A stretch of DNA of 40,199 nucleotides from Thermodesulfobacteriota bacterium (lineage in GTDB: Bacteria > Thermosulfidibacterota > Thermosulfidibacteria > Thermosulfidibacterales > B14-G1), in NCBI GenBank assembly GCA_024274915.1, contig JAJSAC010000062.1, positions 1 to 40,199 on the forward strand, read 5' to 3'. The notes beneath the pieces are model-generated. The model was given only the letters and a program-made list of their open reading frames with translations, made no database searches and was not told the origin of the DNA. Numbering within the stretch: position 1 is the first letter of the stretch; the number at the start of each line of letters is the position of its first letter. A program made the position numbers and the translations under genes. Below are positions 1 to 34,041 of the stretch, one piece after another.

Positions 1-151
1 AGTGAAAGGGCGGGGCATTCCTCCCTTGCCCATGGCTGATAGCTGATGGCTCATGGCTGATAGCAACTATGAGCTATGAACCATGAACTACGAGCTATGA
101 GCTATCATCTCTGCGGTCGGAACCTAAGGGTAAAACTGGGGGAAGTCCTGG
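1..151 (+). repeat. Inverted-repeat element, copy A (left part outside window)
   Basis: First of three copies of a non-coding element. The start lies outside the window. The inner arm GGGCGGGGC is at 8-16. The core at 31-108 consists of 7-bp units: five CATGGCT/GATAGCT-type units (31-65), then five CTATGAG-type units (67-101), which are roughly their reverse complement. The outer end GGGGAAGTCCTG reaches about 150. Compared with copies B and C it lacks 15 bp carrying the right inner arm GCCCCGCCC. It lies immediately upstream of the tetR promoter. Confidence 0.85.
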
Positions 152-163
152 TACAAGCCCCCA

Positions 164-206
164 TTGACAGGGCCCTTCATCCCTGTTACAAACCGACTGG
201 TCAGTC
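164..206 (+). promoter_or_regulatory. tetR-RND operon promoter with candidate TetR operator
   Basis: A TTGACA -35 (164-169) is followed after 17 bp by TACAAA (187-192), a fair sigma70-type -10. Directly downstream is GACTG-GT-CAGTC (195-206), a perfect 5-bp inverted repeat with a 2-bp spacer at the expected transcription start. This position and symmetry suit an autoregulatory operator for the TetR protein encoded 14 bp downstream. The ribosome site GGGGGGAAG precedes the ATG at 221. Confidence 0.6.
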
Positions 207-220
207 TATAAGGGGGGAAG

Positions 221-829
221 ATGAAGAGAAGCCCCGAAGAGAAGCGAAAGGCTATCCTGGACGCTGCCCTGGCCTGCCTCATCGAAAAGGGGTACCACGG
301 AGCCACCATGGACGAGATATGCGAAAGAGCCAAGGTCTCCAAGGGTGCTGCCTACTGGTATTTCAAGAGCAAGAAAGAGATCTTCCGAGACATCCTAGCC
401 CTCTACGCTCAGGAGCGTCTGAGTCTATTAGATGACCTCTTGAAGCAGAAGCCGGACCCCCAAAGGTTTCTCATAGCCCTCTTCGAAAAGGCCAGGGAGA
501 GGATGGAGAATTCGGAAAGGGTAGAAACCTACAGGGCCCTTTTGGAGTACTGGGCCTTTGCCGCCAGAGACCAGGAGGTGAAAGGGTGGATAGAAGAACT
601 ATACCAAAAGTACAAAGAGAAGCTCGCACCCCTTCTGGAGAGGGGCATGAAGGAAGGGGTGTTCAGAGTCCAAAGCCCAGACCAGGCCTTTTCCCTCATC
701 TCCCTGGTGCTCATCGGAGGAGGCGTAATCCCTCTGGTCAACGAGAACGTACTGGGCATCAGAAGAAACTGGGAAGAGATTGTAAAGGTCCTCATGAGGG
801 GACTGACAGGAATCGAAGGGGAACCATGA
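221..829 (+). CDS. TetR/AcrR-family transcriptional regulator
   Basis: 202-residue TetR-type repressor. The N-terminal DNA-binding domain is clear: the helix AILDAALACLIEKGYHGAT, then MDEICERAKVSKGAAYWYFKSK, with the recognition helix around residues 38-45. The remainder is an all-helical ligand-binding and dimerisation domain whose ligand cannot be predicted. It is the first gene of the efflux operon: its stop codon overlaps the ATG of the membrane fusion protein (ATGA, 826-829). It probably represses its own operon through the GACTGGTCAGTC site at 195-206 and is released by a pump substrate. The start at 221 has a strong purine-rich ribosome site. The family call is secure; target and ligand are inferred from position. 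Confidence 0.93.
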   Translation: MKRSPEEKRKAILDAALACLIEKGYHGATMDEICERAKVSKGAAYWYFKSKKEIFRDILALYAQERLSLLDDLLKQKPDPQRFLIALFEKARERMENSERVETYRALLEYWAFAARDQEVKGWIEELYQKYKEKLAPLLERGMKEGVFRVQSPDQAFSLISLVLIGGGVIPLVNENVLGIRRNWEEIVKVLMRGLTGIEGEP

Positions 830-1902
830 TGCATAAGAGCTTTCCACTGCTAATTCTGGCCTTGTTGCTTCTCCCTGGAACTGTCCTCGCCCAAAAGAAG
901 AAGGCGTCTTTTCCTCCTGCCCTGGTGATAACCGTCCCCGTCAGAATGGAGAAAGTGAGTCCTACTGCCCCTTACTCGGGTACGGTCCATTTCAAGGATG
1001 TCTCAGAAGTAGCAGCCGAAGTGACCGGCAAAGTGGACAGGGTCTTCTTCCAAGAAGGGCTTAAGGTGAAAAAGGGAGAACCCCTGGTGATCCTGGACTC
1101 CCAGATCCTACGAAAGGAGCTGGCCTCGGCCAAGGGTGCCTTGGAGGAAGCCCAAGTGGAGCTGGAAAAAGCCAGGATAGACTTGCAGAGAATTGAAGCC
1201 CTTTATAAGCGCCAGGGGGCTTCCCGCCAACTCTACGACAACTACCTGTACAAGGTGAAGGCTCTGGAAAAGAAGGTGGCTGCTCTGGAGGCCTCCCATG
1301 GCAAGCTCACAGTGATGCTGAAAAAGAAGACTATACGGGCCCCCTTTGACGGGGTGGTGATAAAGAGAAAGGTAGATGTGGGAGAGTGGATGACCGAAGG
1401 CTCGGTGTGCGCAGTGGTGGGGAGATTTTCTCCCGCAGAGGTGGTAGTCTCCGTACCATCCAAGTATTTGAAATATCTAAAATCCGGGGCCTCTATACCC
1501 CTCACCATCCCTTCTGTGTCCAAGGAAACCATCAGGGGCCAACTGTTCTCCATCATCCCCCTTGGAGACGTGGCTTCCAGGACATTTCCCGTGAAGATCC
1601 GGCTGGCCAACCATCAGGGACTCTACCTGGACGGTATGGAGGCCAGAGTTCAGATCCCCGTGGGCCCCAAGGGGAAAGCCCTTGTAGTGAGCAGAGACGC
1701 CATAGTCTCCTTCCAGGGAGGTACTTTTGTTTTCACCGTTGCCCAGGGCAGGGCCCAAATCCTCCACGTAAAGGTGAAAGGCTATTTTGGAGACCTGGCC
1801 CTGATAGAAGGCAGAAACTTGAAACCGGGTATACCCGTGGTCATAAGGGGAAACGAAAGATTGCGGCCAGGACAACCCGTCAAAGTAGCCAACAAGAGGT
1901 GA
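826..1902 (+). CDS. RND efflux membrane fusion protein (periplasmic adaptor)
   Basis: About 358 residues. It begins with a signal peptide (MMHKSFPLLILALLLLPG, cleavage near VLA-Q), so the mature protein is periplasmic. A biotinyl-lipoyl half-motif (EVAAEVTGKVDRVFFQEG, LKVKKGEPLV) precedes a helical hairpin (about residues 95-160). The second half-motif (KKTIRAPFDGVV) and the beta-barrel and membrane-proximal domains follow. This is the HlyD/AcrA adaptor that links an inner-membrane RND pump to TolC. The start is one of two adjacent ATGs (826 or 829); 826 overlaps the tetR stop and implies translational coupling. An open frame extends upstream inside tetR but is not coding. The pump gene starts 2 bp after its stop. 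Confidence 0.93.
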   Translation: MMHKSFPLLILALLLLPGTVLAQKKKASFPPALVITVPVRMEKVSPTAPYSGTVHFKDVSEVAAEVTGKVDRVFFQEGLKVKKGEPLVILDSQILRKELASAKGALEEAQVELEKARIDLQRIEALYKRQGASRQLYDNYLYKVKALEKKVAALEASHGKLTVMLKKKTIRAPFDGVVIKRKVDVGEWMTEGSVCAVVGRFSPAEVVVSVPSKYLKYLKSGASIPLTIPSVSKETIRGQLFSIIPLGDVASRTFPVKIRLANHQGLYLDGMEARVQIPVGPKGKALVVSRDAIVSFQGGTFVFTVAQGRAQILHVKVKGYFGDLALIEGRNLKPGIPVVIRGNERLRPGQPVKVANKR

Positions 1903-1903
1903 G

Positions 1904-4900
1904 ATGGATTTAATAGCCCTCTCCATTAGGAAGCCCGTCACTGTAGCGGTAGGAGTGATCCTGGTGGTTCTCTTCGGAATCATAGGGTTAAAATCCCTCC
2001 CCTATCAGCTCACCCCCGATGTCACAGCTCCCGAGATTACCGTCACCACCATATGGCCTGGAGCCACACCCTACGAAATAGAGCAGAACATCATCGAAAA
2101 ACAGGAAAACGCCCTAAAAGGCATCAGGGGGCTCACCCTCATGGAGAGCCACTGCTACAACGGACGGGGAGACATCACCCTCACCTTCAAAGTGGGCACT
2201 GACCTGGACGCTGCCCTCCTCAGGGTGTCCAACAAGCTGGACGAAGTACCCAAATATCCAGAAAACGTGGAAAAGCCCGTGATAAAGGCCACGGGAGCCA
2301 GCTCTTCCCCCGTCATCTGGCTCACCCTCAAAACCCTCCCCGGCAATAAAAAGGGCATCAACACTTACAAAACCTATTTCGAAGACGAAGTGCGACAGTA
2401 CCTAGAAAGGGTGGAAGGAGTGGGAGACCTCTTCGTCTTCGGTGGCAGGGAGACGGAGATTCACGTCAACGTGGACCCCGTGAAACTGGCGGCCCACCGC
2501 CTCACTATCTCTCGAGTGGCCGAAAGAATCAGGGAAGGGAACCAAAACATCTCAGCAGGCCTCATGGACGTGGGTAAGAAGAGCTTTCGGGTGAGGACCA
2601 CAGGGCAGTACAGGAAGCCCCAGGACCTCTACTCCTTGGTGCTGAAAGACACGGAGGACAAAAGGGTCTTCTTGAAAGACGTGGCCAAGGTCACCACGGG
2701 CTATGAGGTTCTCCACCAATCGGTGATGCAGAACGGTGCTACTGTCATTGCCATCGGGGTAAAGAGGGAGCCTGGTGCCAACGTCCTCACCCTCACCCAA
2801 GAGATGAAAAAGGTGGTAAAAAAGCTAAACAGGGGGAAGCTCAAAGAGAAAGGCCTCTATCTGGACTGGGTCTACGACCAAACCCCTTACATCCACAGTG
2901 CCATCGGCCTGGTGAAGAAAAACATTGTCATTGGAGGGCTGTTGGCCATAGTAGTACTCCTCCTCTTCCTCAGAAGCATCCCTCCCACCCTAGTGGTGGC
3001 CACGGCCATCCCCATTTCGGCCATAGGAACCTTCATCTTCATGTGGCTCCTGGGTAGGAACCTTAACGTGGTGAGTCTAGCGGGCATCTCTTTTGCCGTG
3101 GGCATGTTGGTAGACAACGCCATTGTGGTCCTGGAAAACATCGACCGACACCGGAAGATGGGCAAGTCCGCCTTCGAAGCCGCCTACCGCGGCACCACCG
3201 AGGTATGGGGAGCCGTCCTGGCCTCTACGGCCACCACCGTGGCAGTCTTCCTCCCTGTCATATTCATGAAGGAAGAAGCAGGCCAGCTCTTCAAGGACAT
3301 CGCCATCGCCGTCACCTTCTCCGTCACCCTCAGTCTCCTGGTCTCCGTCACCGTCATCCCCATGCTCAGCAACAAACTCTACTCTTGGGCCAGAGAGAAA
3401 GGACTACCCCCCATAAAAAGGGACCCCCTCTCCAAGCTTGGGGCTTGGGCCGTAAGCGCCATCATGAGAGCGGCCCGGTTCTCCACCAAAAACCCGAGAA
3501 CCAGGATAGCCACCGTAGCCTTTCTCACCCTCTTCTCCATCGTCTCATCGATACTCCTTCTTCCCAAGATGGAGTACCTGCCCAAAGGCAATAGAAACCT
3601 AGTTCTGGGAATTCTCATTCCACCCCCAGGCTACTCCTACCAGGAGAGGCGGAGGATGGGGGAATTCATCTTCAAAGTGTCCAAGCCCTACTTCCAGAAG
3701 GGGGGCAAAGACGGTGTGCCCCAGATCAGGAACATCTTTTTTGTGGCCTCGGAGAGGCTTACCCTTTTCGGGGCCGTGGCCCAGGACATGAGGAAGGTGA
3801 AGGGTATTCTGCCCCTGTGCCAGAGAATGATTCGCGGCATCCCCGGGGTTTTCGGCGTGGTGACCCAAATGGGCATCTTTGAAACCAGGTTGGGCCGGGG
3901 CCGGACGGTGGTAGTGAACGTGACGGGACAGCACCTAGACAGCCTAGTCACCGCCTCAAGAAACATATTCGGCACGATCTCCAAGAGAATCCCAGGTGCC
4001 CAGATCAGACCCGTTCCCTCCCTGGAAGTGGCCTATCCCGAGGCCAATTTCGTCCCAAACAGGGAGAGGCTGGCGGCAAACGGCCTCTCCGCCCAGGATC
4101 TGGGAATAGTCCTAGATGTCCTCATGGATGGCAGAAAAGTGGATGAATTCAAACGGCCAGGTCTCACATCCTTGGACCTCATCCTCACCGGGGTAGGGAA
4201 AGGGACCAGGACTCCCGAAGATCTGGCCAACACTCTCATCACCACACCCCGAGGGGAACTTATCCCCATAAACTCCCTGTCAAGGCTCGTCTACCGGCAA
4301 GGTCTCACTGAGATCTACCATGTAGAGAGGAAGAGGGCCTTCTCATTGGAGGTGACCCCACCCGAGAACCTACCGGTGCAGCAGGCCATGGAGATTATCA
4401 ACAGGGATGTCATATCCACCCTGAAAAAGGCGGGTAAACTCCATGGGGTAGACGTCTTTCTAGGGGGAGTGGCCGACAAGCTCACGCAGGCCAGGAAAGC
4501 CCTCCAAGGGAATTTCATCCTGGCAGCCATCATCGTCTATCTCCTCATGTCCGCCCTCTTCGAAAACTTCCTCTATCCATTCATTATCCTCTTTTCCGTG
4601 CCCCTAGCGGCGGCAGGAGGGTTTATAGGACTAAAACTGGAGAACATTTTCATTGCCTCCCAGCCCCTGGATATCCTCACCATGCTAGGATTTGTGATCC
4701 TCATTGGCGTGGTGGTGAACAACGCCATACTCATTGTCAATCAGGCCCTCAACAATGTGCGGTATGAGGGCTTAAAAGGGCAGGAAGCTATCATGGAATC
4801 GGTGAAAACCAGGATCAGGCCCATCTTTATGAGCGCTGCCACCAGCATCTTCGGCATGCTGCCCTTGGTGGTAGCCCCCGGCGCCGGCTCCGAGCTCTAT

Positions 4901-6368: not shown

Positions 6369-6453
6369 GCCTCTCCCAGAACTACTGAAGTTCTATGGCC
6401 TGGAAGCCTACCTTCCCAAACCTTTGGCCTTTAGCCTTTCACTTTCAGCCTTC

Positions 6454-6864: not shown

Positions 6865-6868
6865 GTCC

Positions 6869-8124: not shown

Positions 8125-8127
8125 GAA

Positions 8128-23424: not shown

Positions 23425-23470
23425 ACCACCAGCAAGAAACAACGGATATGGTCTCGACCCTTTCCATCAT
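23393..23470 (-). CDS. trpL: trp operon leader peptide with four consecutive Trp codons
   Basis: A 25-codon reading frame beginning ATG-ATG and ending TAG. It has four consecutive TGG codons at 23420-23431 (residues 14-17, ...SCWWWWRQG...). Chance is unlikely given that it sits at the promoter and overlaps attenuator segment 1. Stalling at the Trp codons when charged tRNA-Trp is scarce would free segment 2 to form the antiterminator. There is no clear ribosome site; the predicted transcription start coincides with the first ATG, so it may be translated as a leaderless mRNA, or from the second ATG (23467). Confidence 0.88.
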   Translation of the reverse strand: MMERVETISVVSCWWWWRQGVPPAP

Positions 23471-23476
23471 GCTGGG

Positions 23477-23505
23477 CCCATAGCACGGAACAGTAAAACA
23501 GTCAA
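23477..23505 (-). promoter_or_regulatory. trp operon promoter
   Basis: On the minus strand, TTGACT (23500-23505), 17-bp spacer, TATGGG (23477-23482). The predicted start falls at or near 23470, the A of the leader ATG. The -35 lies 10 bp from the end of repeat copy B. Confidence 0.6.
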
Positions 23506-23515
23506 GGGAAAAATC

Positions 23516-23768
23516 CCAGGACTTCCCCCACTTTTACTCTTATGGGTCAGGGCGGGGCGTTCCGACGGCAGAGATGATAGCTCATAGCTCATAGTTCATA
23601 GCTCGTAGTTCATGGTTCATAGCTCATAGTTGCTATCAGCCATGAGCCATCAGCTATCAGCCATGGGCAAGGGAGGGATGCCCCGCCCTTTCACTTGTTG
23701 GAAAGAAAAAATCCAGGATTCTGAACATGATGCCTTTACCAGGAAGGGAATTTTGGGGGAAGTCCTGG
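23516..23768 (-). repeat. Inverted-repeat element, copy B (opposite orientation to A and C)
   Basis: A complete copy of about 253 bp. The outer arms CCAGGACTTCCCCC (from 23516) and GGGGGAAGTCCTGG (to 23768) are inverted. The inner arms GGGCGGGGC (23550-23558) and GCCCCGCCC (23680-23688) are also inverted. The heptad core is at 23574-23665, with seven CTATGAG-type units on one side and five CATGGCT/GATAGCT-type units on the other. It has no coding potential. It lies between the divergent trp and apgM promoters. Confidence 0.88.
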
Positions 23769-23776
23769 TTTAGGGT

Positions 23777-23870
23777 CAGGAGTTCCCCGCCTTTTCGCTT
23801 CCTCGCAACGAAACTCCTTGATGCTGAATGTGGCACCATTACCAGAAGACTGATTCTGGAGGAACTCCTG
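23777..23870. repeat. Degenerate partial relative of the inverted-repeat element
   Basis: Directly follows copy B. It is bounded by CAGGAGTTCC (23777-23786) and GGAACTCCTG (23861-23870), an inverted pair. The stretch from about 23822 to 23875 aligns with the last part of copy B (TTACCAG-A-G and CTCCTGGTTTAGG against TTACCAGGAAG and GTCCTGGTTTAGG), and the heptad core is missing. The remainder of the gap to 24024 holds only a TTGACA (23974-23979), a possible -35 for apgM with no good -10. Confidence 0.6.
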
Positions 23871-24024
23871 GTTTAGGATAGAGGGGAGTACAAATTGCCC
23901 ATGATCCGGGGGGATGGCACTTTTAGTGTCTGATTTTGCAATGTGGGAGGGGGCCTGTTCGGCCTAGCGGTCCTTGACAGGGGAGGGTTTTGGTGAAGAT
24001 TGTTAAGGATGGGAGGTGAAGCAC

Positions 24025-25245
24025 ATGGATAGGGAAGCCTTTTTTAAAGAGTTGGCGGAGGAGACAGAGAGCAAGATTCTTTTGGTGGTGCTGGATGGCT
24101 TGGGAGGGCTTCCAGGAGAAGGGGGTAAAACGGAACTGGAGGCTGCCTGGACCCCTAACATGAACCAGTTGGCTTCTAGGTCGGCCCTAGGGCTTACCCA
24201 CCCCATATCTTACGGGATTACCCCTGGTTCTGGCCCTTCTCATTTGGCCCTTTTTGGTTATGACCCCTTTCAGTATGAGATTGGTAGGGGGGTTCTGGAA
24301 AATCTTGGGCTGGAGGTAGAGCTCAAGAAGGGAGATGTGGCGGTTAGGGGCAACTTTTGCACCGTTGAGGATCAGAACGGTCACCTAGTGGTGGTGGACC
24401 GTAGGGCAGGGAGGATCCCTACGGAGAAAAATCGGGAGCTTTGCTCCCGGCTCCAGGAGGTCATAAAGGAGGTTCAGGGGGTGGAGGTCCTCTTCACACC
24501 TGGTATGGAGCACCGTTTTGCCTTGCGCCTCAGGGGCGACGGGCTTGCTGGTTGTTTAGAGGATACCGATCCTCAACACGAGGGCTTTGAACCCTTGCCC
24601 CTCAGGGCCACCTGTTCCCAGGGAGAAAAGACGGTGGCCGTGGTGGAGGAGCTTCTAAGAAGGGTGAGGGATGTCCTTAAGGGTGAAGAACGGGCCAACT
24701 ATGTTCTTCTTAGAGGGTTCTCCGAGGTGCCTCACATTCCTTCTATGTATGAACTCTTCAAACTCAAGGCTGCGGCTATAGCCACCTATCCCATGTATCG
24801 AGGATTGGCCCGGCTGGTGGGCATGGACCTTCTGCCATTGGAGGGCATGAAGCTGGAGCACGAACTGGAAACCCTAAAGAGACACTGGAAGGACTACACC
24901 TTCTTTTATTTGCATGTAAAGAAGACGGACTCCTATGGTGAGGATGGCAACTTCTGGGCCAAAGTGAAAGTGATCGAGGAATTCGATAGGCTTCTCCCCA
25001 AGATCATGGCCCTCAAACCCGAGGTGTTGGTCATTACAGGAGACCATTCTACTCCCAGCAAGCTCAAGGCCCACAGCTGGCACCCCAACCCCTTCCTTCT
25101 TTATTCGCCTTATGTGAGATGGGGAGGTGAGCAGCTTTTTTCTGAGAAGGCCTGTGCTTGGGGGACTCTAGGCCAGTTTCCGGCCGTGGAGGCTGTGCCC
25201 CTCATGATGGCCCATGCCCTGAAACTCAAAAAATTTGGGGCTTGA
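24025..25245 (+). CDS. apgM: Cofactor-independent phosphoglycerate mutase, archaeal type
   Basis: About 406 residues of the alkaline-phosphatase superfamily. The N-terminal metal-binding motif is [39 protein letters not shown] holds the catalytic Ser region, and the C-terminal motif [19 protein letters not shown] carries the remaining Asp/His metal ligands. It interconverts 3- and 2-phosphoglycerate in glycolysis and gluconeogenesis. The ATG at 24025 is chosen because GGGAGG lies 8 bp upstream; a GTG at 24016 overlaps that site. Third-position base use (G/T-rich) is unlike that of plus-strand genes left of 23.5 kb, consistent with inversion of this block. Confidence 0.94.
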
Positions 25246-25319
25246 TTTTTGCCTTTGAGAGGATGCAATAGAGGCTTCAACTTCGCGGAACCCGTTGTGA
25301 GGCTTATGAGGAGATAGAC

Positions 25320-26990
25320 ATGGAAAGGCTTATAGAAGAACATCACTTACCCCCTAAGGAGTTGTGGCCTCAATTTGTCTTTCCCGAGGAGATGATTTTC
25401 CCCTCCAACGCCAACCTGGCTTATTCCCTACTGGATCGTCATGTCATGGGTGGCATGGGGGACCAAATAGCAGCTTACTTCTTTGATAAGAAAGTGACCT
25501 ACAGAGAGTTGTACGATGGCTCTTTGAGAATAGCCAATGCCCTAGCGGAGCTTGGGATCAGAAAGGGGAGCCGGGTTGCCTTTATGCTTCTCAACTCCCC
25601 AGAGGCCTTAATGGTGAACTCGGCTATCTTGAGGATGGGGGCTATTCCTGTGCCCGCTTCGCCCTTTTGGTCTCCAGATAATATGGTTTTCATTCTCAAT
25701 AACGTGGAGGCCTGTTGCCTGGTAGTGAGCTACTCTTTTTATGGGAACGTGCGCAGGGTCAGAAACGGGTTGCACATGCTGGAACACCTCATATTGGTGA
25801 GGGCTCCTTCTCATGTGGTTAAGGAGGAGAGATGTTTCTCCTTGGAAGAGATCCTGGCCCAGGGGAGCGACGAATATTTCCTGGAGAATGTGGAGCTGGA
25901 CGACGTGGGCGTCATCCTTCACACCTCGGGAACCACAGGACGGCCTAAGGGTTGTGTCCACTTTGTTAAGAACATCCTCACCGAATGCTACCTGGTTAAT
26001 AAATACGTGTGGCGCCTCACCATTGGCGATGTAATAGGAGGCTCGGCTCCCGTCACTTTTGCTGCGGGATATGGAACCTTTTGCCTTATTCCGTTGTGGG
26101 CCGGAGCCTCCGTCTCCCTGGTTCCCAGATTTGTGCCCGAGGAGGTCTTGGACGCCATAGCTCGTCACCGGGTCACAGTACTTACAGGTCTCACCAACAC
26201 CTATCAGAAGCTTATGGAGTCTCCCGAGTTTGATGGCTACGACCTTTCTAGCCTAAGGCTTTGCACTACTGGGGGTAGCTCCTTGGAAGTGAGGGTCTAC
26301 CAGGAGTGGCTGAACAGGACGGGGCACTCCCTGATGGAAGGGTTGGGGGCTACGGAGTTGCTTCATCTGGTCACTTCCAACGCCGTGGGTATGAGGGTGA
26401 AACCGGGTTCCGTAGGCGTTCCCATACCTGGCTTTGAAATCAGGGTGGTGAATGAAGAGGGAAAAGATTGCAGGCCCGGGGAGATGGGTAGGATGCTGGT
26501 AAGAGGTCCTACGGGTGCTCTCTACTGGAAGCCTCATGCGGCTGATGGGCGCCTTCTTAGGGCTCAGAAACGAACGGTGATAGACGGCTACACCTTTCTG
26601 GGAGATATAGTTATCAGGAACAAGAACGGTTACTTCTACTATATCTCTCGGGAGGAAGATCTTCTCTTTAAAGAAGGCCACAAGATAGGTCCCATGGAGA
26701 TTGAAGAGGTTTTGAAGGATCATCCTTTGGTGGAGGATGCTGGGGTTGTGGAAACAGAAGGAGATGGGAGGGAGAAGATTTTGGCTTTCGTCTCCCTCCC
26801 TCCCCACATCGCGCCTTCTGAGGATTTGAAGGGGTTTCTGATGGACTTCTGCCGTAAGAAGTTGGTCTCCTACCAAGTCCCCGACGAGATCCACTTTGTG
26901 GATTTTATTCCCAGGACCCCTGCGGGGAAGCCTCTGCGGTGGATGCTGAGAAAGTGGGAGTTGAAAGAGCAGAAAGGGAAGAAGGCCTAA
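25320..26990 (+). CDS. Aryl-CoA ligase paralogue (benzoate/2-aminobenzoate-CoA ligase-like)
   Basis: 556 residues, clearly a paralogue of the ligase at 11036 over its entire length. The P-loop HTSGTTGRPKGC is near residue 201, followed by GLGATEL and the C-terminal lysine in TPAGKPLRW. The A8 hinge reads EEDLLFKEGHKIGP instead of the usual DMIKSSGYRIGP, losing the standard Lys and changing the loop, so kinetics or substrate may differ. It activates an aromatic or related acid with ATP and CoA. It is 74 bp after apgM with a GAGGAG ribosome site, probably co-transcribed with it, and its stop overlaps the convergent hemC stop by 4 bp. Confidence 0.87.
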   Translation: MERLIEEHHLPPKELWPQFVFPEEMIFPSNANLAYSLLDRHVMGGMGDQIAAYFFDKKVTYRELYDGSLRIANALAELGIRKGSRVAFMLLNSPEALMVNSAILRMGAIPVPASPFWSPDNMVFILNNVEACCLVVSYSFYGNVRRVRNGLHMLEHLILVRAPSHVVKEERCFSLEEILAQGSDEYFLENVELDDVGVILHTSGTTGRPKGCVHFVKNILTECYLVNKYVWRLTIGDVIGGSAPVTFAAGYGTFCLIPLWAGASVSLVPRFVPEEVLDAIARHRVTVLTGLTNTYQKLMESPEFDGYDLSSLRLCTTGGSSLEVRVYQEWLNRTGHSLMEGLGATELLHLVTSNAVGMRVKPGSVGVPIPGFEIRVVNEEGKDCRPGEMGRMLVRGPTGALYWKPHAADGRLLRAQKRTVIDGYTFLGDIVIRNKNGYFYYISREEDLLFKEGHKIGPMEIEEVLKDHPLVEDAGVVETEGDGREKILAFVSLPPHIAPSEDLKGFLMDFCRKKLVSYQVPDEIHFVDFIPRTPAGKPLRWMLRKWELKEQKGKKA

Positions 26991-27901
26991 CCCCCCAGAA
27001 TGGCCTCAATGATGCCTCTTCCCCCCTGATCCAGGAGGGTTTGGGCCAGTTCTGAGCCTATTATATGGGCTTGGGAAAGGGGGCCTTTCTGTTCACCCCT
27101 GTAAACCTTTTTCCCATCTGGAGAGGCGATAAGTCCTCGGAGAGTGAGTTCTTCCCCCTCTACCCCTCCTAGGGCAGCTACTGGAATTTGGCAAGACCCT
27201 CCGATGTGGGCCAGGAAGGCCCTTTCTGCCTTTATGGAGGCCTCGGTTTCGGGGTGGTGGAGGGTCTTCAGTATGTCCATCATTTCACCTTGCCTGACCT
27301 CCAAAGCCAGGGCACCTTGGCCAATGGCAGGTAGGCATTCTTGGGGTGATAGTACCTTCATGGGGAGAGAGTTTATGCCCAGTCGTTTCACCCCAGCCAG
27401 GGCTACCACTATGGCGTCCAGATCTGTCTCTCTCAACTTCCGGAAGCGGGTATCCAAGTTGCCCCTCAGGGGTTTGATATTCAGATCTGGTCTCCTGGCC
27501 AGGAGCTGGGCCTGACGCCGAAGGCTAGAGGTTCCTACTTTTGCTCCGCGGGGCAGGGAATCCAGGGAAGCCTCTTCCTTTGCCACTAGCAGATCCCAGG
27601 GCTCCTCTCTGGGAGGAATGGCGCCTATCACCAGACCGGGTGGCAGTTCGGTGGGCACGTCCTTCATGGAGTGGACGGCCATGTCCACCCTTTCTTCCAG
27701 AAGGGCTTCTTCGATTTCTTTGACGAAGAGTCCTTTCCCCCCGATCTTGGCCAGAGGGGCGTCAAGGATCTTGTCTCCTTTGGTCTTTATCACCACCAAC
27801 TCCACCTGAAGTCCAGGAGAAAGGGCTTCTATCATCTCCCTCACGTGGTTGGCTTGCCACAGGGCTAGTTTACTGCCTCTGGTCCCTATCTTTATGTTCA
27901 T
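26987..27901 (-). CDS. hemC: Hydroxymethylbilane synthase (porphobilinogen deaminase)
   Basis: 304 residues from ATG 27901 (MNIKIGTRGSKLALWQA), which has GGAGGAGG upstream; a longer open frame adds eight residues within hemA. Motifs: VVIKTKGDKILD, AVHSMKDVPTELP, GTSSLRRQAQLL, LRGNLDTRFRKL (catalytic Asp region) and the dipyrromethane cofactor Cys in AHIGGSCQIPVAA. It polymerises four porphobilinogens. It overlaps the end of hemA by 32 bp. Confidence 0.95.
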   Translation of the reverse strand: MNIKIGTRGSKLALWQANHVREMIEALSPGLQVELVVIKTKGDKILDAPLAKIGGKGLFVKEIEEALLEERVDMAVHSMKDVPTELPPGLVIGAIPPREEPWDLLVAKEEASLDSLPRGAKVGTSSLRRQAQLLARRPDLNIKPLRGNLDTRFRKLRETDLDAIVVALAGVKRLGINSLPMKVLSPQECLPAIGQGALALEVRQGEMMDILKTLHHPETEASIKAERAFLAHIGGSCQIPVAALGGVEGEELTLRGLIASPDGKKVYRGEQKGPLSQAHIIGSELAQTLLDQGGRGIIEAILGG

Positions 27902-29165
27902 CTTCCTTTTCCTCCTCCAGAGCAAAGAGTTCTTTCACCAGTTTAGCCACCTTCTCCCCTTCTCCTTTGGAAGCAGCTTCCTTCATATATGAAAGGGGAG
28001 GGTGGAGGATTTTGTTCACAATGGCCGATGTGAGGGCCTCTAGGGCCTTGGCCTCTTTGCCGTTGAGCCTCATGCGGTGGAGGGCCTTTTCCAGTTCCTT
28101 TTTACGAATATCATCGCACCAGTTCCGAAGGGAGACGATAACTGGCACCACCTCTTGGCTCCTGAGCCAGTGCAAAAAGTGTTCCACCTCTTCTTCCACG
28201 ATCTTTTCGGCTTTGACGGCCTCCTTTTCCCGCCTTTTTCGGTTTTCTTCCACCACTTGTTCCAGATCGTCTATGTCGTAGGCGTAAACGTTTTCTACCC
28301 GCTCCACTTGAGGGTCTACGTTTCTGGGAACGGCTATATCTATGAAGAACATGGATCTCATCTTCCTTTCCTTCATCACCTTCTGAACCATATCCTTGGT
28401 GATTAGATACTCCTGGGCCCCCGTAGAGGTAATGACGATGTCCGTGTCCACCAACTCCAGGGTTAGGTTTTCCATGGGAACTGCTTCTCCGTGGAGTTTT
28501 TCTGCCAGCTCCTGTGCCCTGGAGAAGGTGCGGTTCACCACCGTAAGTCGGGCTACCCCTTGATTCACGAGATGCTGGGCTGCTAGCTTTCCCATCTCTC
28601 CTGCACCCACCAGCATCGCCTTTTTCTTTTCCAGTTCTCCGAATATCTTCTTGGCCAACTCCACAGCGGCGTAACTTACAGATACGGCACTTTCACCCAC
28701 GCCAGTCTCTGCCCGTATCCTTTTGGAGACTGAGAGGGCCTTTTTCATGAGCTGGTTGAGGATGATCCCTGTGGCCTCGGAGGCCATGGCTTGTTCAAAG
28801 GCATCCTTCACTTGCCCCACGATTTGGGGCTCACCCAGAACCATGGAGTCGAGGCTGGAGGTCACCCGGAAGATATGCTTGATGGCTTCCCTGCCATGGT
28901 AAATGTAGGTGACGGGAAGGAGTTCTTCCTGGCTAACCCCTTTCAGTTCCTGGAGGGTGGACAGGATGTGTTTCTCTCCACCCTTGTAGGCCCAGGAGTA
29001 GACTTCTACCCGATTGCAGGTGGATAGGATCATCACTTCCCTGACCAACCTGTAGTCCAGGAACCTCTCGTAGGCATGGTAGGTTTCTGTCTGAGAGAAC
29101 GCCAACTTTTCCCTCAGTTCCACGGGACTTGTCCGATGGTTGAGGCCCACTACGAGGATGTCCAT
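27870..29165 (-). CDS. hemA: Glutamyl-tRNA reductase
   Basis: 431 residues. The catalytic cysteine is in MILSTCNRVEVYS (about residue 50). GEPQIVGQVKDAF and RIRAETGVGESAVSVSYAAVELA are family signatures, the NADPH-binding loop is LVGAGEMGKLAA, and a C-terminal helical dimerisation domain ends in a highly charged tail. It makes glutamate-1-semialdehyde from Glu-tRNA, the first committed step of C5-route heme synthesis. It lies 7 bp after the cytochrome assembly gene. Confidence 0.96.
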   Translation of the reverse strand: MDILVVGLNHRTSPVELREKLAFSQTETYHAYERFLDYRLVREVMILSTCNRVEVYSWAYKGGEKHILSTLQELKGVSQEELLPVTYIYHGREAIKHIFRVTSSLDSMVLGEPQIVGQVKDAFEQAMASEATGIILNQLMKKALSVSKRIRAETGVGESAVSVSYAAVELAKKIFGELEKKKAMLVGAGEMGKLAAQHLVNQGVARLTVVNRTFSRAQELAEKLHGEAVPMENLTLELVDTDIVITSTGAQEYLITKDMVQKVMKERKMRSMFFIDIAVPRNVDPQVERVENVYAYDIDDLEQVVEENRKRREKEAVKAEKIVEEEVEHFLHWLRSQEVVPVIVSLRNWCDDIRKKELEKALHRMRLNGKEAKALEALTSAIVNKILHPPLSYMKEAASKGEGEKVAKLVKELFALEEEKEDEHKDRDQRQ

Positions 29166-29172
29166 TTTCCCC

Positions 29173-29994
29173 TCACATGGAAGAGTAGCTGTGAAGTCCT
29201 GGTAGCAATAGATTTACCCCCAAGAAGGTGAATAGAACTGCCCCGAAGCCCACAACCGAAAGGATGGCTGCTCTCCTGCCTCTCCAGCCCACAGTCATCC
29301 GGCCGTGGAGGATGGCGGCATAAATAAACCAGGTGATGAGGGACCAAGTCTCTTTGGGATCCCAGCTCCAGTAGGCCCCCCAGGCGTACTGGGCCCAAAT
29401 AGCTCCCGTGACGATGCCCAGGGTGAGAAAGGGAAATCCCCAGGTGAGAAGCCTGTAGTTCAGCTCGTCCAGCTTGCCTAAGGAGGGGAGTTTTTGGAAA
29501 AGCCCTCCCAGTTTCTTCCTCCTGATGTGACGTTCTTGTATGAGGTAAACGGTGCTCACCACAAATGCCAAAGCGAAGGCCACCTCTCCTACGAAAGAAG
29601 TGGTTGCGTGGATGTAAAGCCATACGCTTTTGAGGGCAGGGGGAAGGGGGCGGACGGCCTGGGGGGTTAAAGCGGCTACCAGAACCCCTAGGAAGTTTAA
29701 CGGGGCCACGAAAGACCCCAAAATGGGCATCTTGTATCTCCATTCCAGAAGGAGATAGCCTCCCGCCACCATCCATGAGAAGAGGGATAAGGACTCGAAT
29801 AAGTTGGTGGCAGGCAGATGGCGGGCTACAAATGCCCGGGATACTAAAGCCACCGTGTGAATTACGAAGGCCACCATGAGCAGGATGTAGGCCTTTTGGG
29901 ATATGCCCTCCCTGGTGCGGTAGAGGTAGTAGACGTATAGCAGGGCCGAGGCTAGGTAAAAGAAAGCCGCTATTTTGAAAATCACGATGTCCAT
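29173..29994 (-). CDS. ccsA: CcsA/CcmC-family cytochrome c assembly membrane protein
   Basis: About 273 residues from ATG 29994; a TTG at 30015 would add seven. It has about eight hydrophobic membrane segments. The WWD heme-handling signature is clear: WGAYWSWDPKETWSLITW near residue 205, with conserved His in LYIHATTSFVGE and ILHGR. It belongs to the system II heme exporter/cytochrome c synthetase family or the closely related HemX group; linkage to hemA-hemC fits either. It is the first gene of the ccsA-hemA-hemC unit and is divergent from tRNA-Ser(TGA). Confidence 0.9.
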   Translation of the reverse strand: MDIVIFKIAAFFYLASALLYVYYLYRTREGISQKAYILLMVAFVIHTVALVSRAFVARHLPATNLFESLSLFSWMVAGGYLLLEWRYKMPILGSFVAPLNFLGVLVAALTPQAVRPLPPALKSVWLYIHATTSFVGEVAFALAFVVSTVYLIQERHIRRKKLGGLFQKLPSLGKLDELNYRLLTWGFPFLTLGIVTGAIWAQYAWGAYWSWDPKETWSLITWFIYAAILHGRMTVGWRGRRAAILSVVGFGAVLFTFLGVNLLLPGLHSYSSM

Positions 29995-30064
29995 CTGTTC
30001 AAGTTTGCCTCCCAAAGGTGCTTCGAGAGAATAACCCAGGCTATATCTTTATATCAAGTTTCCC

Positions 30065-30094
30065 TTGACTCTTCTACTGGCTAGGGGCCATTAT
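30065..30094 (+). promoter_or_regulatory. Candidate promoter of tRNA-Ser(TGA)
   Basis: TTGACT (30065-30070), 18-bp spacer, CATTAT (30089-30094), about 10 bp before the tRNA 5' end. Confidence 0.45.
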
Positions 30095-30103
30095 TTTCCC
30101 TGC

Positions 30104-30193
30104 GGAGGGGTGGCCGAGTGGACGAAGGCGGGTGACTTGAAATCACTTGTCCCTGCAAAGGGACCGGGGGTTCGAATCCCTCCCCCTCCGCCA
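30104..30193 (+). tRNA. tRNA-Ser (anticodon TGA)
   Basis: The acceptor stem GGAGGGG/CCCCTCC closes the molecule, with discriminator G and an encoded CCA. The anticodon arm GGTGA/TCACT has the loop CTTGAAA, giving TGA (30138-30140), which reads UCN serine codons. The long variable arm (TGTCCCTGCAAAGGGACC) is typical of class II serine tRNAs, and the T-loop is GTTCGAATC. Confidence 0.97.
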
Positions 30194-30214
30194 GTTTTTT
30201 GGGTTGAAGAGTTG

Positions 30215-30247
30215 AAAAACTGGAGATTTCCCCGGTTTTTTATTTCT
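30215..30247 (+). terminator. Intrinsic terminator after tRNA-Ser(TGA)
   Basis: Stem AAAAACTGG/CCGGTTTTT (9 bp, one G-U), loop AGATTTCC, then TATTT. It begins 22 bp after the tRNA. Between here and 30423 I see no gene; open frames crossing the tRNA are spurious. Confidence 0.65.
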
Positions 30248-30423
30248 GTTCCCCATCTCCATTTGCAGCCAACCAAGCCCCATTTGGGGAGAGACCTCGG
30301 GCTTTTCCCTTGGGCCGTTGAATGCCCGCTGTATAGCGGTTGCGGCATGAGTGCCACCAGGTGACCCACCCTTGTGGAAGAGAAGTCTGTCTTCCAGATT
30401 ATCTATAAAACACAAAAAGCCAT

Positions 30424-30452
30424 TTGAGAAAGCGGGCGAAATGGGCTAAAAA
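30424..30452 (+). promoter_or_regulatory. Candidate promoter of the sensor kinase gene
   Basis: TTGAGA (30424-30429), 17-bp spacer, TAAAAA (30447-30452), about 100 bp before the kinase ATG. A GGAGGTGAGG ribosome site precedes the ATG at 30550. Confidence 0.45.
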
Positions 30453-30549
30453 GGTCGTAATTGGGAATTTTAAGCGGCTCTTTTTAGGGTGTTGTGTGCC
30501 TTGGGATGGGTGATGGAAAGAAAACGGGGAGGGTGGAGGTGAGGTAAAG

Positions 30550-32013
30550 ATGCAGGGTGGATTCGAAGCTCAACACAGGTTGATAGTAAACAATGCAATA
30601 GTTGGAGTTTTTTTGTTCCAAGATGACAAGTTCTGGTACGTTAATCCTGCCTTGGCAAAAATCTTTGGATACCAACCAGAAGAGATCATGGAGAAGCTGG
30701 GTCCCCTGGATCTCACCCATCCCGACCATCGTAACCTGGTTACTAAACAGATTCAGCGACGACTTAGAGGTGAAGTGGAGCATGCGCGTTACACGTTTCG
30801 TGGATTGCGAAAAGACGGTTCTTCTGTATATTGCGAAGTCTTTGGTAGCCGCATCAACTATCGGGAAAGACCAGCTATTGTAGGTACTTTAGTTGACATT
30901 ACCAAACGCAGAAAGGCAGAAGAAGCTCTAAAAGAGTCGGAAGAGAGACACCGTTCATTGATGAATGATGTTATGGAAAGCTCCGATATGGGAATATTCA
31001 TTCTTGATGCTGATTTTAAGGTTGTATGGATAAACAAGGCCACGGAGCGCTTTTTTGGTCTCAGAAGAGAAGAGGTTATTGGCAAGGACAAAAGAGGGCT
31101 TGTCAAGGAAAGGATGAAGCACATCTTTGACAACCCTCGGCGGTTTGCAGACAAGGTTTTGGCCGCATATGAAGACAACACATACATCGAGAGCTTTGAG
31201 TGTCACGTGCTGCCAGGTCCCGGGAGGGAAGAGCGGTGGCTGGAGCACTGGAGCCAGCCTATTAGGACAGGTTTTTATGCCGGAGGACGCATTGAACATT
31301 ACTACGATGCCACCAACCGGAGGAAGGCTCAGGAAGCTTTGCAGGAAAGTGAGGAGCGGTACCACGACTTGGTGGAAAATATCGGGGATCTTATTCAGAG
31401 TGTTGCGCCGGATGGGCGTATTTTGTATGCGAACCGTGCTTGGAGAGAGACCCTTGGCTATGGAGAAGATGAGATTGGCACCCTTTCATTGTTTGACGTT
31501 ATTCACCCTGATAGCCAGGCCAATTGCGCAGAGGTGTTCCAGCGTGTGTTGTCTGGGGAGAGAGTTGATAGGATTGAAGCAGAGCTCATCACCAAGGATG
31601 GCAGGAAAGTTATTGTAGAGGGAAATGCAAGCTGCAAGTTTGTGGATGGGGAGCCTGTCCATACCCGTGCCATTTTCCGCGATGTCACCGAGCACAAGCG
31701 CTCAGAGAAGGCCTTGGAATCTTACGCGCATCATCAGCAAATATTGGCTGAACTGGGCCAAATGGCCCTCGCCGACATTGGTTTGGAGGCCCTTTTCGAT
31801 CTAACGGTCAACCTTGTGGCTCGAACCTTAAGGGTTGAATACTGCAAGATACTGGAACTCCTTCCTCAGGGGGATGCTATGCTATTGGTGGCTGGAGTGG
31901 GTTGGAAGAAGGGTCTAGTTGGTAAGGCCAAGGTGGGTTGTGGTAGGAATTCCCAGGCTGGCTATACCCTACTCTCCAGCGAACCTGTGATTGTGGATGA
32001 TCTGAGCACGTAG
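30550..32013 (+). CDS. N-terminal half of the split kinase: three PAS domains and half a GAF domain
   Basis: 487 residues if the TAG at 32011 terminates. It carries only sensory domains and no kinase core, so alone it would have no catalytic output. It retains the promoter and ribosome site of the original gene. Confidence 0.7.
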   Translation: MQGGFEAQHRLIVNNAIVGVFLFQDDKFWYVNPALAKIFGYQPEEIMEKLGPLDLTHPDHRNLVTKQIQRRLRGEVEHARYTFRGLRKDGSSVYCEVFGSRINYRERPAIVGTLVDITKRRKAEEALKESEERHRSLMNDVMESSDMGIFILDADFKVVWINKATERFFGLRREEVIGKDKRGLVKERMKHIFDNPRRFADKVLAAYEDNTYIESFECHVLPGPGREERWLEHWSQPIRTGFYAGGRIEHYYDATNRRKAQEALQESEERYHDLVENIGDLIQSVAPDGRILYANRAWRETLGYGEDEIGTLSLFDVIHPDSQANCAEVFQRVLSGERVDRIEAELITKDGRKVIVEGNASCKFVDGEPVHTRAIFRDVTEHKRSEKALESYAHHQQILAELGQMALADIGLEALFDLTVNLVARTLRVEYCKILELLPQGDAMLLVAGVGWKKGLVGKAKVGCGRNSQAGYTLLSSEPVIVDDLST

Positions 32014-32070
32014 AGGCGCTTTCGCGGTCCCTCACTGCTCTTTGATCATAAGGTTGCCAGCGGAATCAGC

Positions 32071-33744
32071 GTGATAGTTGGAAAACCGGAAAATCCCTTT
32101 GGTGTTTTGGGAGTGCACACCACTCTCCACAGGGAGTTTACACGGGGGGAGGTAAATTTCTTACAGTCTGTGGCCAATGTTCTGGCAGAGGCCATAGAAT
32201 TGAAGAAAGCAAAGGAAGCCCTGCAAGAATCGGAGGAAAAGTACAAAACCCTTACAGAAAGCTCCCTCACCGGTGTCTTTATCCAGCAGGATGGGAAGTA
32301 CGTTTTTGTTAATAAACAATTTGCCTACATGCACGGGTACGCACCTGAGGAGTTGATAGGGAAGGACTTCTTAGACCTAATCCACCCTGACGACAGAGAA
32401 GCTGCGAAGCAGCGGGCGCTAGAGAGGTTGAAGGGAGGGCCTGCTCCCCAACAGCATGAGATTCGGAGGATAACAAAGGATGGGAAAACCATCTGGTGTG
32501 AGATTATGGCTACCCGCATCGAATACGGAGGGAAGCCAGCCATCATGGGAAATGTGGTGGACATCACCGAGCGTAAGGACCTAGAGAGGCAGCTCATCCA
32601 GTCTCAGAAGATGGAGGCCATCGGAAGACTCACCGCGGGGATAGCCCATGATTTCAATAATCTAATTTCTACCGTTATGGGATTTGCTGAGTTGACGATG
32701 GCAAATTTGGACGAGGACGACTCGATCTATGCAAATCTGAAGCACATCTGGGACGCTTCAAACCGGGCTGCTGATCTGGTTCGTAAGCTCCTCCTTTTCA
32801 GCAGGAAGCAGCCTATGGAGATGTATCCCATTGATCTCAACACTCTTATTAAAGACCTCTGTAAGGTGATTCAGAGACTCATTGGGGAAGATATAGCTAT
32901 CAACTTGGAATTGAATTCTGCCCCCTGTGCCATCCGAGGTGATGCAGGAAGTGTGGAACAAGTGGTCATGAATCTGGTGGTCAACGCGAGGGACGCTATG
33001 CCTCAAGGGGGAGGGCTCACCATAAAAACGGAAAATGTCTTTGTAGATGAACGTTATAGTGAGGTTTATTCCTATGCTCGTCCCGGGGAGTTTGTCTGTT
33101 TGTCGGTTACGGATACAGGGATCGGTATGGACGAGGAGACCCTCCAGCGCGTATTTGACCCCTTCTTCACCACTAAAAAAGCCGAGGAGGGCTCTGGCCT
33201 TGGTTTGTCTGTTGTGTATGGTATTGTCAAGGAGCACGGGGGATGGATAAACGTTTACAGTGAGCCCGGTTTGGGTTCCACCTTCAGGGTTTACCTGCCA
33301 CTCTTATCTGCAGGAGGCACCGTTGAGATAAGGAAAGGGGTTTCCCTGCTGGATCTTGAAGGCGACGAATGGAGGATTTTATTGGTGGAAGACGATAAAT
33401 ACCTCCGGGAGTTTGCCAAAAGGGCCCTTGGTGAGAAAGGCTGTACAGTGTTTGAAGCTGCAAATGCCAGAGAAGCCGTGGATCTCTTCAACCGGGAGGG
33501 AGGAGATTTCCACCTGATATTCAGCGATGTGGTTTTGCCAGATAGAAGCGGTCTTCAGTTGGCTGAACATCTCCTTTCTCACAAACCAGGAATCCCAGTC
33601 CTTTTAAGTAGTGGCTACGTGGACCGGAAATCCCAGTGGCCTGCGATAGAGGAGAAAGGTTTCTTCTTTTTACAGAAGCCCTACACCATGGCGGGCCTCT
33701 TCGAAGCTGTTAGAGAAGCTGTCGAGTCGGGTGGTAAGGGATGA
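32071..33744 (+). CDS. C-terminal half of the split kinase: GAF end, PAS, HisKA, HATPase, receiver
   Basis: Up to 557 residues from a GTG at 32071, without a convincing ribosome site. It would keep the PAS domain, phosphoacceptor His (GIAHDFNN), ATPase motifs and receiver Asp (SDVVLPD), so if translated by reinitiation it could still be an active kinase lacking its upstream sensors. No partner response regulator is nearby. Confidence 0.7.
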   Translation: MIVGKPENPFGVLGVHTTLHREFTRGEVNFLQSVANVLAEAIELKKAKEALQESEEKYKTLTESSLTGVFIQQDGKYVFVNKQFAYMHGYAPEELIGKDFLDLIHPDDREAAKQRALERLKGGPAPQQHEIRRITKDGKTIWCEIMATRIEYGGKPAIMGNVVDITERKDLERQLIQSQKMEAIGRLTAGIAHDFNNLISTVMGFAELTMANLDEDDSIYANLKHIWDASNRAADLVRKLLLFSRKQPMEMYPIDLNTLIKDLCKVIQRLIGEDIAINLELNSAPCAIRGDAGSVEQVVMNLVVNARDAMPQGGGLTIKTENVFVDERYSEVYSYARPGEFVCLSVTDTGIGMDEETLQRVFDPFFTTKKAEEGSGLGLSVVYGIVKEHGGWINVYSEPGLGSTFRVYLPLLSAGGTVEIRKGVSLLDLEGDEWRILLVEDDKYLREFAKRALGEKGCTVFEAANAREAVDLFNREGGDFHLIFSDVVLPDRSGLQLAEHLLSHKPGIPVLLSSGYVDRKSQWPAIEEKGFFFLQKPYTMAGLFEAVREAVESGGKG

Positions 33745-33758
33745 CACCCGTCCTTTTT
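33728..33758 (+). terminator. Possible terminator at the end of the kinase gene
   Basis: CGGGTG (33728-33733) and CACCCG (33745-33750) form a 6-bp stem around an 11-nt loop spanning the stop codon, followed by TCCTTTTTATT. Confidence 0.5.
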
Positions 33759-33797
33759 ATTGGCGAATGGGGCAATGTCGGAAAACAACGGATTTTT

Positions 33798-34041
33798 CAG
33801 GACTTCCCCCAAAATTCCCTTCTTGGTGAAGATATAGCTTTCAGAATCCTAGACTTTACCTTTCAGACAAGTGAAAGGGCGAGGCATCCCTCCCTTGCCC
33901 ATGGCTGATAGCTGATGGCTCATGGCTGATAGCAACTATGAGCTATGAACCATGAACTACGAGTTATGAACTATGAGCTATCATCTCTGCGCTCGGAACG
34001 CCCCGCCCTTATCCCTAAGGGTAAAACTGTGGGAAGTCCTG
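33798..34041 (+). repeat. Inverted-repeat element, copy C
   Basis: Complete copy of 244 bp in the same orientation as copy A. Outer arms CAGGACTTCCCCC (33798-33810) and GGGAAGTCCTG (to 34041); inner arms GGGCGAGGC (33877-33885, one mismatch) and GCCCCGCCC (34000-34008). The heptad core is at 33900-33984 with five left units and six right units. Left flank (CAAAATTCCCTTC, TCAGAATCCT) and core match the reverse complement of copy B. Confidence 0.88.

What the first reader, a model, noticed from the sequence alone, without database searches (positions are those of the whole stretch)
1..34041. Family of ~250-bp non-coding elements with nested inverted repeats and a heptad core
Three copies (1-151, 23516-23768, 33798-34041) share outer arms CAGGACTTCCCC/GGGGAAGTCCTG, inner arms GGGCGGGGC/GCCCCGCCC and a core of 7-bp units. 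The left half is always five CATGGCT/GATAGCT-type units. The right half is CTATGAG-type units, roughly the reverse complement, present five, seven or six times in A, B and C. The whole can fold into one long imperfect hairpin. Heptanucleotide tandem repeats are known from cyanobacteria (STRR), but this MITE-like framing with variable heptad number is not one I recognise.
Basis: seen in the sequence. Interest (0 to 1): 0.72.

Follow-up and report, generated by a model that had tools for sequence, protein, structure and literature searches.

The report
Hairpin transposon carrying seven-base repeats
A short, gene-less mobile element is scattered through this bacterium's genome, mostly just upstream of promoters, and its central hairpin has been rebuilt from a seven-base repeat that also lengthens an arm of the organism's vitamin-B12 riboswitches.

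Summary
The repeat family is real: 78 places among loci fetched from this 2.03-Mb draft genome. It is a MITE, with 14-bp terminal inverted repeats, 195-259 bp, and 8-11-bp target duplications at 24 of 39 complete copies. Its likely driver is an IS4-superfamily-like insertion sequence; only IS ends with the same termini survive, at contig ends. Insertion is directional: sigma70-like promoters start 12-15 nt outside the ends and point away (32 ends outward, 0 inward at score 9 or more, of 117).

The heptads are not what moves. Copies with a non-heptad core also have target duplications; that core is shared with a sister genus and has compensatory stem changes. The heptad hairpin replaced this stem; unit number changes in whole heptads. 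The same hairpins extend one arm of six cobalamin riboswitches in three related genomes; such heptads occur in many phyla.

In the window, copies B and C recombined and inverted 10 kb between them (swapped duplications, sister-genus gene order). Closest known: BrickBuilt MITE; Nostoc trnL intron P6b heptads.

The parts
1..150 (-). MITE copy A, cut by the contig start; one outer arm (137-150), heptad core, lacks about 15 nt with one inner arm
   Evidence: the other end is probably on contig C18 (flank match 10 bp with one mismatch)
164..192 (+). sigma70-like promoter (TTGACA, 17 nt, TACAAA) starting 14 nt outside copy A, reading towards a TetR-type regulator gene (221-829)
   Evidence: sequence; genome-wide pattern; TetR_N
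23517..23767 (+). MITE copy B (251 nt), full length
23517..23530 (+). terminal inverted repeat, left end of B
23754..23767 (-). terminal inverted repeat, right end of B
23550..23558 (+). inner arm GGGCGGGGC of B
23680..23688 (+). inner arm GCCCCGCCC of B
23575..23631 (+). forward heptad array (SATRGYT units) of B
23632..23666 (-). opposed heptad array (ARCYATS units) of B
23477..23505 (-). sigma70-like promoter (TTGACT, 17 nt, TATGGG) pointing away from B towards the anthranilate-synthase-like gene 21914-23272
   Evidence: sequence
23777..23870 (+). 94-nt degenerate MITE derivative without heptads, its own ends CAGGAGTTCC and GGAACTCCTG, flanked by GTTTAGGGT (23768-23776) and GTTTAGGAT (23871-23879)
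   Evidence: D4
33798..34041 (-). MITE copy C (244 nt), inverted relative to B
23768..33797 (.). 10-kb segment inverted by recombination between B and C; the flank repeats of the two copies are swapped (AAAAATCC; GTTTAGGGTCAG)
   Evidence: ancestral gene order in sister genus

Best explanation
The elements are copies of a MITE, moved in trans by a transposase of an IS4-superfamily-like insertion sequence that recognises CAGGACTTCCCCC ends, makes staggered cuts of about 9-10 bp and prefers sites just upstream of sigma70 promoters. [Shown: ends, target duplications, copy number, matching IS ends, promoter adjacency and its orientation. Inferred: that this transposase moves the MITE, and that it chooses promoters.] The middle of the MITE is a hairpin. 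In the older form it is a stem with compensatory base changes. In most copies here an imperfect hairpin of heptanucleotide repeats has replaced that stem. [Shown: both core types, the stem changes, sharing of the older core with a sister genus. Inferred: direction of replacement.] Heptad units are gained and lost in whole sevens on either arm, most simply by strand slippage [inferred], so unit number is not fixed. The heptads therefore act as a replaceable stem filler, as in an arm of the cobalamin riboswitches of the same family of bacteria [inferred]. Inverted copies recombine; in this window that inverted 10 kb between B and C [shown by swapped duplications and gene order].
For: Copy number: 78 places in fetched loci, 68 matches of a 31-mer against 0 control. 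Ends and target duplications: 24 of 39 distinct complete copies have 8-11-bp direct repeats and 1 has 7 bp; in shuffled pairings at most about 1% reach that similarity at any one length. IS partner: contigs C54 and C64 end in CAGGACTTCCCCCAGTTTTCGGGG..., 83% similar to two places in congener G001; contig C73 ends in the opposite IS end with a transposase C-terminus. A related complete IS in G047 is 1487 bp with ends CAGGACCTTACCC/CAGGACTTTACCC and a 443-aa protein with weak DDE_Tnp_1 and IS4/IS701 matches. Promoters. Core swap. Stem covariation: 3 of 11 pairs changed on both sides, 92.4% of cells paired, 1 of 500 shuffles as good. Heptad steps: 51 of 56 heptad cores have a length of 1 modulo 7. 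Riboswitch arms. Inversion.
Against: No complete matching transposase is in this assembly: PF01609 finds nothing and the C-terminal fragment finds nothing in G000. 14 of 39 complete copies have no recognisable target duplication; recombination explains two of them (B, C), the rest are open. The transposase family assignment rests on a relative in another lineage, below every NCBIfam cut-off and just below Pfam's. The G047 IS itself shows no clear target duplication. No transcript or transposition data. Stem covariation rests on six sequences from two genera. Heptad arms in many copies are very unequal (for example 7 against 1 counted units), so perfect pairing is not strictly kept.
Confidence: 0.82

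Rival explanations
1. The heptad hairpin is the working part: a regulatory RNA or protein-binding array that the MITE brings to promoters, kept because it is useful.
For: Ends lie next to promoters in a fixed orientation. MacGregor (PMC4679880, abstract and passages) proposes a regulator-binding role for TAACTGA heptads. Heptad hairpins are kept in riboswitch arms in three genomes.
Against: Non-heptad copies coexist with target duplications (C36, C66, C34). Unit number drifts widely, down to cores of 36 nt. In other phyla the arrays share no common flanks. The promoter lies outside the element, so adjacency follows from target choice alone.
Confidence: 0.12
2. Promoter adjacency reflects selection (only harmless insertions upstream of promoters survive), not target choice.
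For: Insertions inside promoters or genes would be lost (general knowledge; not tested here).
Against: The peak is narrow and one-sided (22 of 117 ends at 13-16 nt, 7 at 9-12 nt, 0-3 in every 4-nt window from 17 nt out). Survival alone would not fix the distance to within a few bases.
Confidence: 0.15
3. The family is a non-transposing repeat (REP/STRR-like hairpin) spread by recombination, with chance flank matches.
For: Heptad hairpins elsewhere are not in a MITE frame.
Against: Target duplications, precise ends and IS ends with the same termini.
Confidence: 0.02
4. The heptads arose independently in G000 and in sister genus G004 and were not inherited from one heptad MITE.
For: G004 copies C74 and C29 carry only short arrays in the left part of the core, unlike the double array of G000; heptads arise in other hairpins of the same genomes.
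Against: Both genera have heptads in the same MITE and use the same consensus; a shared ancestor cannot be excluded with the few G004 copies seen.
Confidence: 0.4

Closest known systems
BrickBuilt MITE of Porphyromonas gingivalis (PMC4596501; abstract and passages read)
   Same: A bacterial MITE that trapped a tandem repeat and spread it; 19 copies in one strain; intergenic; ends resemble those of resident IS elements
   Different: Its repeat is 23 nt, not 7; its authors find promoters inside the element, whereas here the promoters lie outside; I read no report of a replaced stem, riboswitch arms or an inversion in those passages
Heptanucleotide hairpin P6b of the Nostoc trnL group I intron (PMC3488679, PMC4476775; abstract and passages read)
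   Same: Degenerate heptanucleotide repeats base-pair into the stem of a structured RNA; indels are repeat units, sometimes on one side only; two motif classes fill the same role
   Different: Motifs TDNGATT and NNTGAGT, in an intron of cyanobacteria; not mobile
TAACTGA direct repeats of Beggiatoaceae, cyanobacteria and some Bacteroidetes (PMC4679880; abstract, passages and section 24 read)
   Same: Intergenic heptads in distant phyla; the rotation GATAACT fits SATRGYT at 6 of 7 positions
   Different: Direct arrays, a single motif, no transposon frame; the author states that no transfer mechanism is evident
STRR heptads of heterocystous cyanobacteria, including RNase P RNA (recalled, not read)
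   Same: Heptads in structured RNAs
   Different: Other motifs
IS4 superfamily insertion sequences
   Same: DDE transposase with a C-terminal YREK-type motif (motif recalled; present in the G047 protein), target duplications of about 9-12 bp (recalled)
   Different: The MITE has no gene; the partner transposase is known here only from ends and relatives

Membership tests
MITE (miniature inverted-repeat transposable element) | Short (50-1000 bp), no transposase gene | tested here: met
   Complete copies 195-259 nt (two rows of 179 and 200 nt lie at contig ends and are not complete); no open frame that fits in the sequence shown
MITE (miniature inverted-repeat transposable element) | Terminal inverted repeats | tested here: met
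   CAGGACTTCCCCCA at both ends
MITE (miniature inverted-repeat transposable element) | Target site duplications | tested here: met
   24 of 39 distinct complete copies, 8-11 bp
MITE (miniature inverted-repeat transposable element) | Termini shared with an autonomous element of the genome | tested here: inconclusive
   IS ends with the same termini at three contig ends, but no complete IS in the assembly
IS4 superfamily (as the driver) | DDE transposase of IS4 type | tested here: inconclusive
   Relative in G047: DDE_Tnp_1 20.7 bits (cut-off 23), IS4_3 39 bits (cut-off 160); own protein known only by its C-terminal end
Cyanobacterial-type heptanucleotide (STRR) repeats | Tandem degenerate heptads | tested here: met
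Cyanobacterial-type heptanucleotide (STRR) repeats | Same motif as the described families | tested here: not met
   SATRGYT differs from TDNGATT and GGGGATT; closest single motif is TAACTGA, 6 of 7 after rotation
BrickBuilt MITE | 23-nt repeat unit and BrickBuilt termini | tested here: not met
   7-nt unit, other termini (against passages of PMC4596501)
Rfam families | Match at gathering score within the MITE | tested here: not met
   No match in the MITE copies

The most novel reading that the evidence does not exclude
Heptad arrays of the SATRGYT kind are a pan-bacterial stem module: self-complementary seven-base repeats that repeatedly take over and lengthen hairpin tips in structured RNAs and mobile DNA (riboswitch arm, MITE core, group I intron, possibly RNase P RNA), growing by slippage while the other arm is kept matched by template switching. 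In this lineage a promoter-seeking MITE carries them, which would supply the spreading mechanism that was missing for such repeats.
Probability: 0.25. Interest if true: 0.8.

Novelty: new variant of a known kind. Interest (0 to 1): 0.6.

Why it matters
It shows one way in which heptanucleotide repeats can spread through a genome: on a MITE whose stem they have replaced. It ties together two literatures, heptad arms of structured RNAs and bacterial MITEs. It describes an element that lands at a fixed distance upstream of promoters, which would be useful for finding promoters and for studying how a transposase recognises them. And it gives a worked case of MITE-driven inversion. The claim that heptads are interchangeable stem fillers is directly testable.

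Tried and rejected
Transposase search by PF01609 in the own genome: nothing. Search of plasmid records with the transposase fragment and with the G047 transposase: nothing. Solved structures: nothing. Rfam for the non-heptad core: nothing. Pfam and NCBIfam on the 61-aa fragment: only meaningless weak matches.

The idea that the heptads are the transposase's binding sites was dropped, because heptad-free copies also have target duplications. The idea that heptads elsewhere are also MITE-borne was dropped for the six genomes compared, including own-family G001 and G004: outside the G004 MITE copies the places share essentially only heptads.

Control weakness: the reversed-pattern control is not clean, because reversed GATAGTT is a rotation of itself. 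The first array scan on reversed sequences (82 arrays) is uninformative for the same reason and was not used. A first alignment of non-heptad cores used one G004 copy in the wrong orientation and was redone. One cross-copy flank match joins two left ends (C37/C62, 10 bp with one mismatch); I take it for chance.
Full report
1. The observation. The three copies are in the window, with corrections: copy A is truncated by the contig start and lacks one inner arm, and 'five units on the left' is true only of these three. The window is contig C55 of a 2,026,761-base, 77-contig genome, G000. The first search scored 40 candidates and listed 43 matches: 40 copies at 84.9-100% identity and 3 weak heptad-only matches. 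A 31-mer from the right inner part gave 68 places with up to 3 mismatches and 0 for the reversed control. From 40 loci and 40 loci, plus the window, blastn gave 84 pieces. I dropped 2 pieces that are riboswitch heptads and counted 4 split copies once, which leaves 78 places. Seven pairs of contig-end halves share flank repeats and are probably single insertions, so there are at most 71 distinct insertions among them. At least seven more end matches near contig ends were not fetched, so the total is a lower bound. Many contigs begin or end inside a copy.

2. It is a MITE. Alignment of 41 copies shows sharp ends CAGGACTTCCCCCA...TGGGGGAAGTCCTG. Of 39 distinct complete copies, 24 have direct repeats of 8-11 bp (8: 6, 9: 9, 10: 7, 11: 2), one of 7 bp, and 14 have none (one mismatch allowed from 9 bp on). 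In shuffled pairings at most about 1% reach that similarity at any one length.

3. The driver. Contigs C54 and C64 end in 142 bases that begin with the same terminus and are not MITE. The only other matches of this stretch in 21 genomes are two places in congener G001 at 83%. Contig C73 ends in the opposite terminus; read backwards it gives the C-terminal end of a protein, YYAIADGIMALLTKHPGK.... In G001 a left IS end leads into ...FRYYAIADG. That 61-aa piece has matches in 5 of 117 genomes, G001 included, and none in G000. One relative, in G047, is a 443-aa protein inside a 1487-bp element with ends CAGGACCTTACCC and CAGGACTTTACCC. Its library matches are weak: DDE_Tnp_1 20.7 bits (cut-off 23); NCBIfam IS4_3 39 bits (cut-off 160) and IS701 25.8 bits (cut-off 150). 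It contains YLTRWRIEETIRFVK, which fits the IS4 Y-R-E-K signature as I recall it. That G047 element shows no clear target duplication. No matching transposase was found in the own genome, probably because a multicopy IS was not assembled or binned; this is inference.

4. Where it lands. For 117 distinct flanks read outward from the ends, sigma70-like promoters (TTGACA, 16-18 nt, TATAAT) scoring 9 or more of 12 start at 13-16 nt in 22 flanks and at 9-12 nt in 7; every other 4-nt window out to 92 nt has 0-3. Within the first 30 nt, 32 flanks have an outward promoter of that score, against 0 inward-pointing ones in a window of the same width. At score 8 and start positions 7-18 it is 59 of 117, against 13 and 8 in two control windows. 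With target duplications of 9-10 bp, the cut lies about 3-5 nt upstream of the -35 box. I take this for target choice; selection is the rival.

5. Two cores. Four good copies (C34, C36, C62, C66) and one degenerate copy (C64) have the same arms but a core without heptads, beginning CCATATTTGAG and ending CGATTATATGG. Three of them have target duplications of 9-10 bp. A search with such a copy finds four matches in G004, of a sister genus, and none in the other 19 relatives. In G004, copies C3 and C31 have the non-heptad core and C113 a variant of it, while C74 and C29 carry short heptad arrays inside the same core. Six aligned non-heptad cores keep an 11-pair stem with compensatory changes, for example GGCGC/GCGCC, GCCCC/GGGGC and GCCGC/GCGGC: 92.4% of cells paired, 6 cells changed on both sides, covariation score reached by 1 of 500 shuffles and far above all slid versions. 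The set is small. So the non-heptad stem looks older and structurally constrained, and the heptad hairpin looks like a replacement. Heptad copies also fold well.

6. Unit number. Of 84 pieces, 67 had both core anchors and 60 remained after removing repeats; 4 are non-heptad cores. Of the 56 heptad cores, 51 have lengths of 1 modulo 7 (36 to 99 nt), and 5 have single-base or irregular changes. Both arms vary, and often unequally.

7. The same heptads elsewhere. Rfam finds cobalamin riboswitches at two own places that carry heptads. In their alignments the extra sequence (95 and 74 nt against 5 in the model) sits in the loop of the CCACUG...GGGAAGG arm. A search of 10 genomes gives 21 matches. 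I could read the arm in 16: six have heptad hairpins of 78-116 nt (three in G000, two in G004, one in G002), nine have arms of 26-33 nt (G001, G002, two in G003, two in G005, two in G006, G009), and one in G008 has 46 nt without heptads. Five were not resolved. All six heptad arms have forward units 5' and opposed units 3', and fold with z from -2.75 to -6.92.

8. Across bacteria. In 386 genomes taken, (SATRGYT)x3 occurs in 28 (5 of 9 in the own order, 23 of 377 elsewhere); the reversed control occurs in 7 of 386 and is itself not clean. In 115 arrays outside the own genome, 43 have an inverted partner within 150 bp; 32 are convergent, as in the MITE, and 11 divergent, or about 26 to 11 when both arms of one hairpin are counted once. 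In the genomes compared the places share essentially only heptads, apart from the G004 MITE copies. So the arrays are real and widespread, but whether they share an origin is open.

9. The inversion. Copies B and C lack their own target duplications, but B's left flank matches C's right flank (AAAAATCC) and B's right matches C's left (GTTTAGGGTCAG). Shuffled flanks give 0.22 exact pairs of 8 bp or more per whole set. Exchange between the two inverted copies would have flipped 23768-33797. In sister-genus G004 the homologues of genes 34093-34506 and 24016-25245 are divergent neighbours 176 bp apart, which is the order that undoing the inversion gives.

10. Known work. MacGregor 2015 (PMC4679880; abstract, passages and one section read) describes TAACTGA heptads in three groups of bacteria and says no exchange mechanism is evident. 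Rehm 2015 (PMC4692102, passages) treats GGGNATC heptads and cites the idea that heptad abundance reflects polymerase slippage. PMC3488679 (2012, passages) and Kaasalainen 2015 (PMC4476775, passages) describe heptad stems in the Nostoc trnL intron, with unit indels on one or both sides. Klein 2015 (PMC4596501, abstract and passages) describes a MITE that trapped a 23-nt repeat. A Geobacter genome paper (PMC2700814, passages) lists other heptad elements. I found no paper on heptads inside a MITE or on heptads in a cobalamin riboswitch arm, in searches, which cover open-licence papers only.

11. Judgement. The MITE is a new family of a known kind; the heptad-for-stem replacement and the fixed promoter offset make it a new variant.

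Noticed in passing
L032:1787-2067, L025:1200-1440, L294 (G000), L282 and L291 (G004), L290 (G002): Cobalamin riboswitches whose CCACUG arm is lengthened by a heptad hairpin, while relatives have a short arm.
   Followed up: yes
window 23777-23870: 94-nt heptad-free derivative of the same MITE family directly beside copy B, with its own near-perfect 9-bp flanking repeat.
   Followed up: partly
contig ends of G000 (C54, C64, C73): Ends of an unassembled insertion sequence with the MITE's termini; in C64 it lies directly beside a degenerate non-heptad MITE copy.
   Followed up: partly
L208 (G001:C102): Apparent internal deletion derivative of that IS: left end about 186 bp from a transposase C-terminal segment.
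   Followed up: no
contig ends of G000 (pairs): Shared flank repeats allow seven pairs of contig ends to be joined, so the MITE could be used to scaffold this draft genome.
   Followed up: partly
L224 (G059): Heptad array roughly 200 bp from an RNase P RNA gene.
   Followed up: no
L274:1500-1660 (G004): A MITE-like core with a different inserted hairpin (GGTCTTGCCCC...GGGGCAAGACC) at the place where heptads sit in other copies.
   Followed up: no
G000 copies: 12 of 39 reconstructed empty sites lie in a stop-free stretch of 200 codons or more, so some insertions may be inside genes (for example C34).
   Followed up: no
window 221-6368: Copy A lies just upstream of a TetR-type regulator followed by an AcrB-type efflux pump gene (Pfam).
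   Followed up: no
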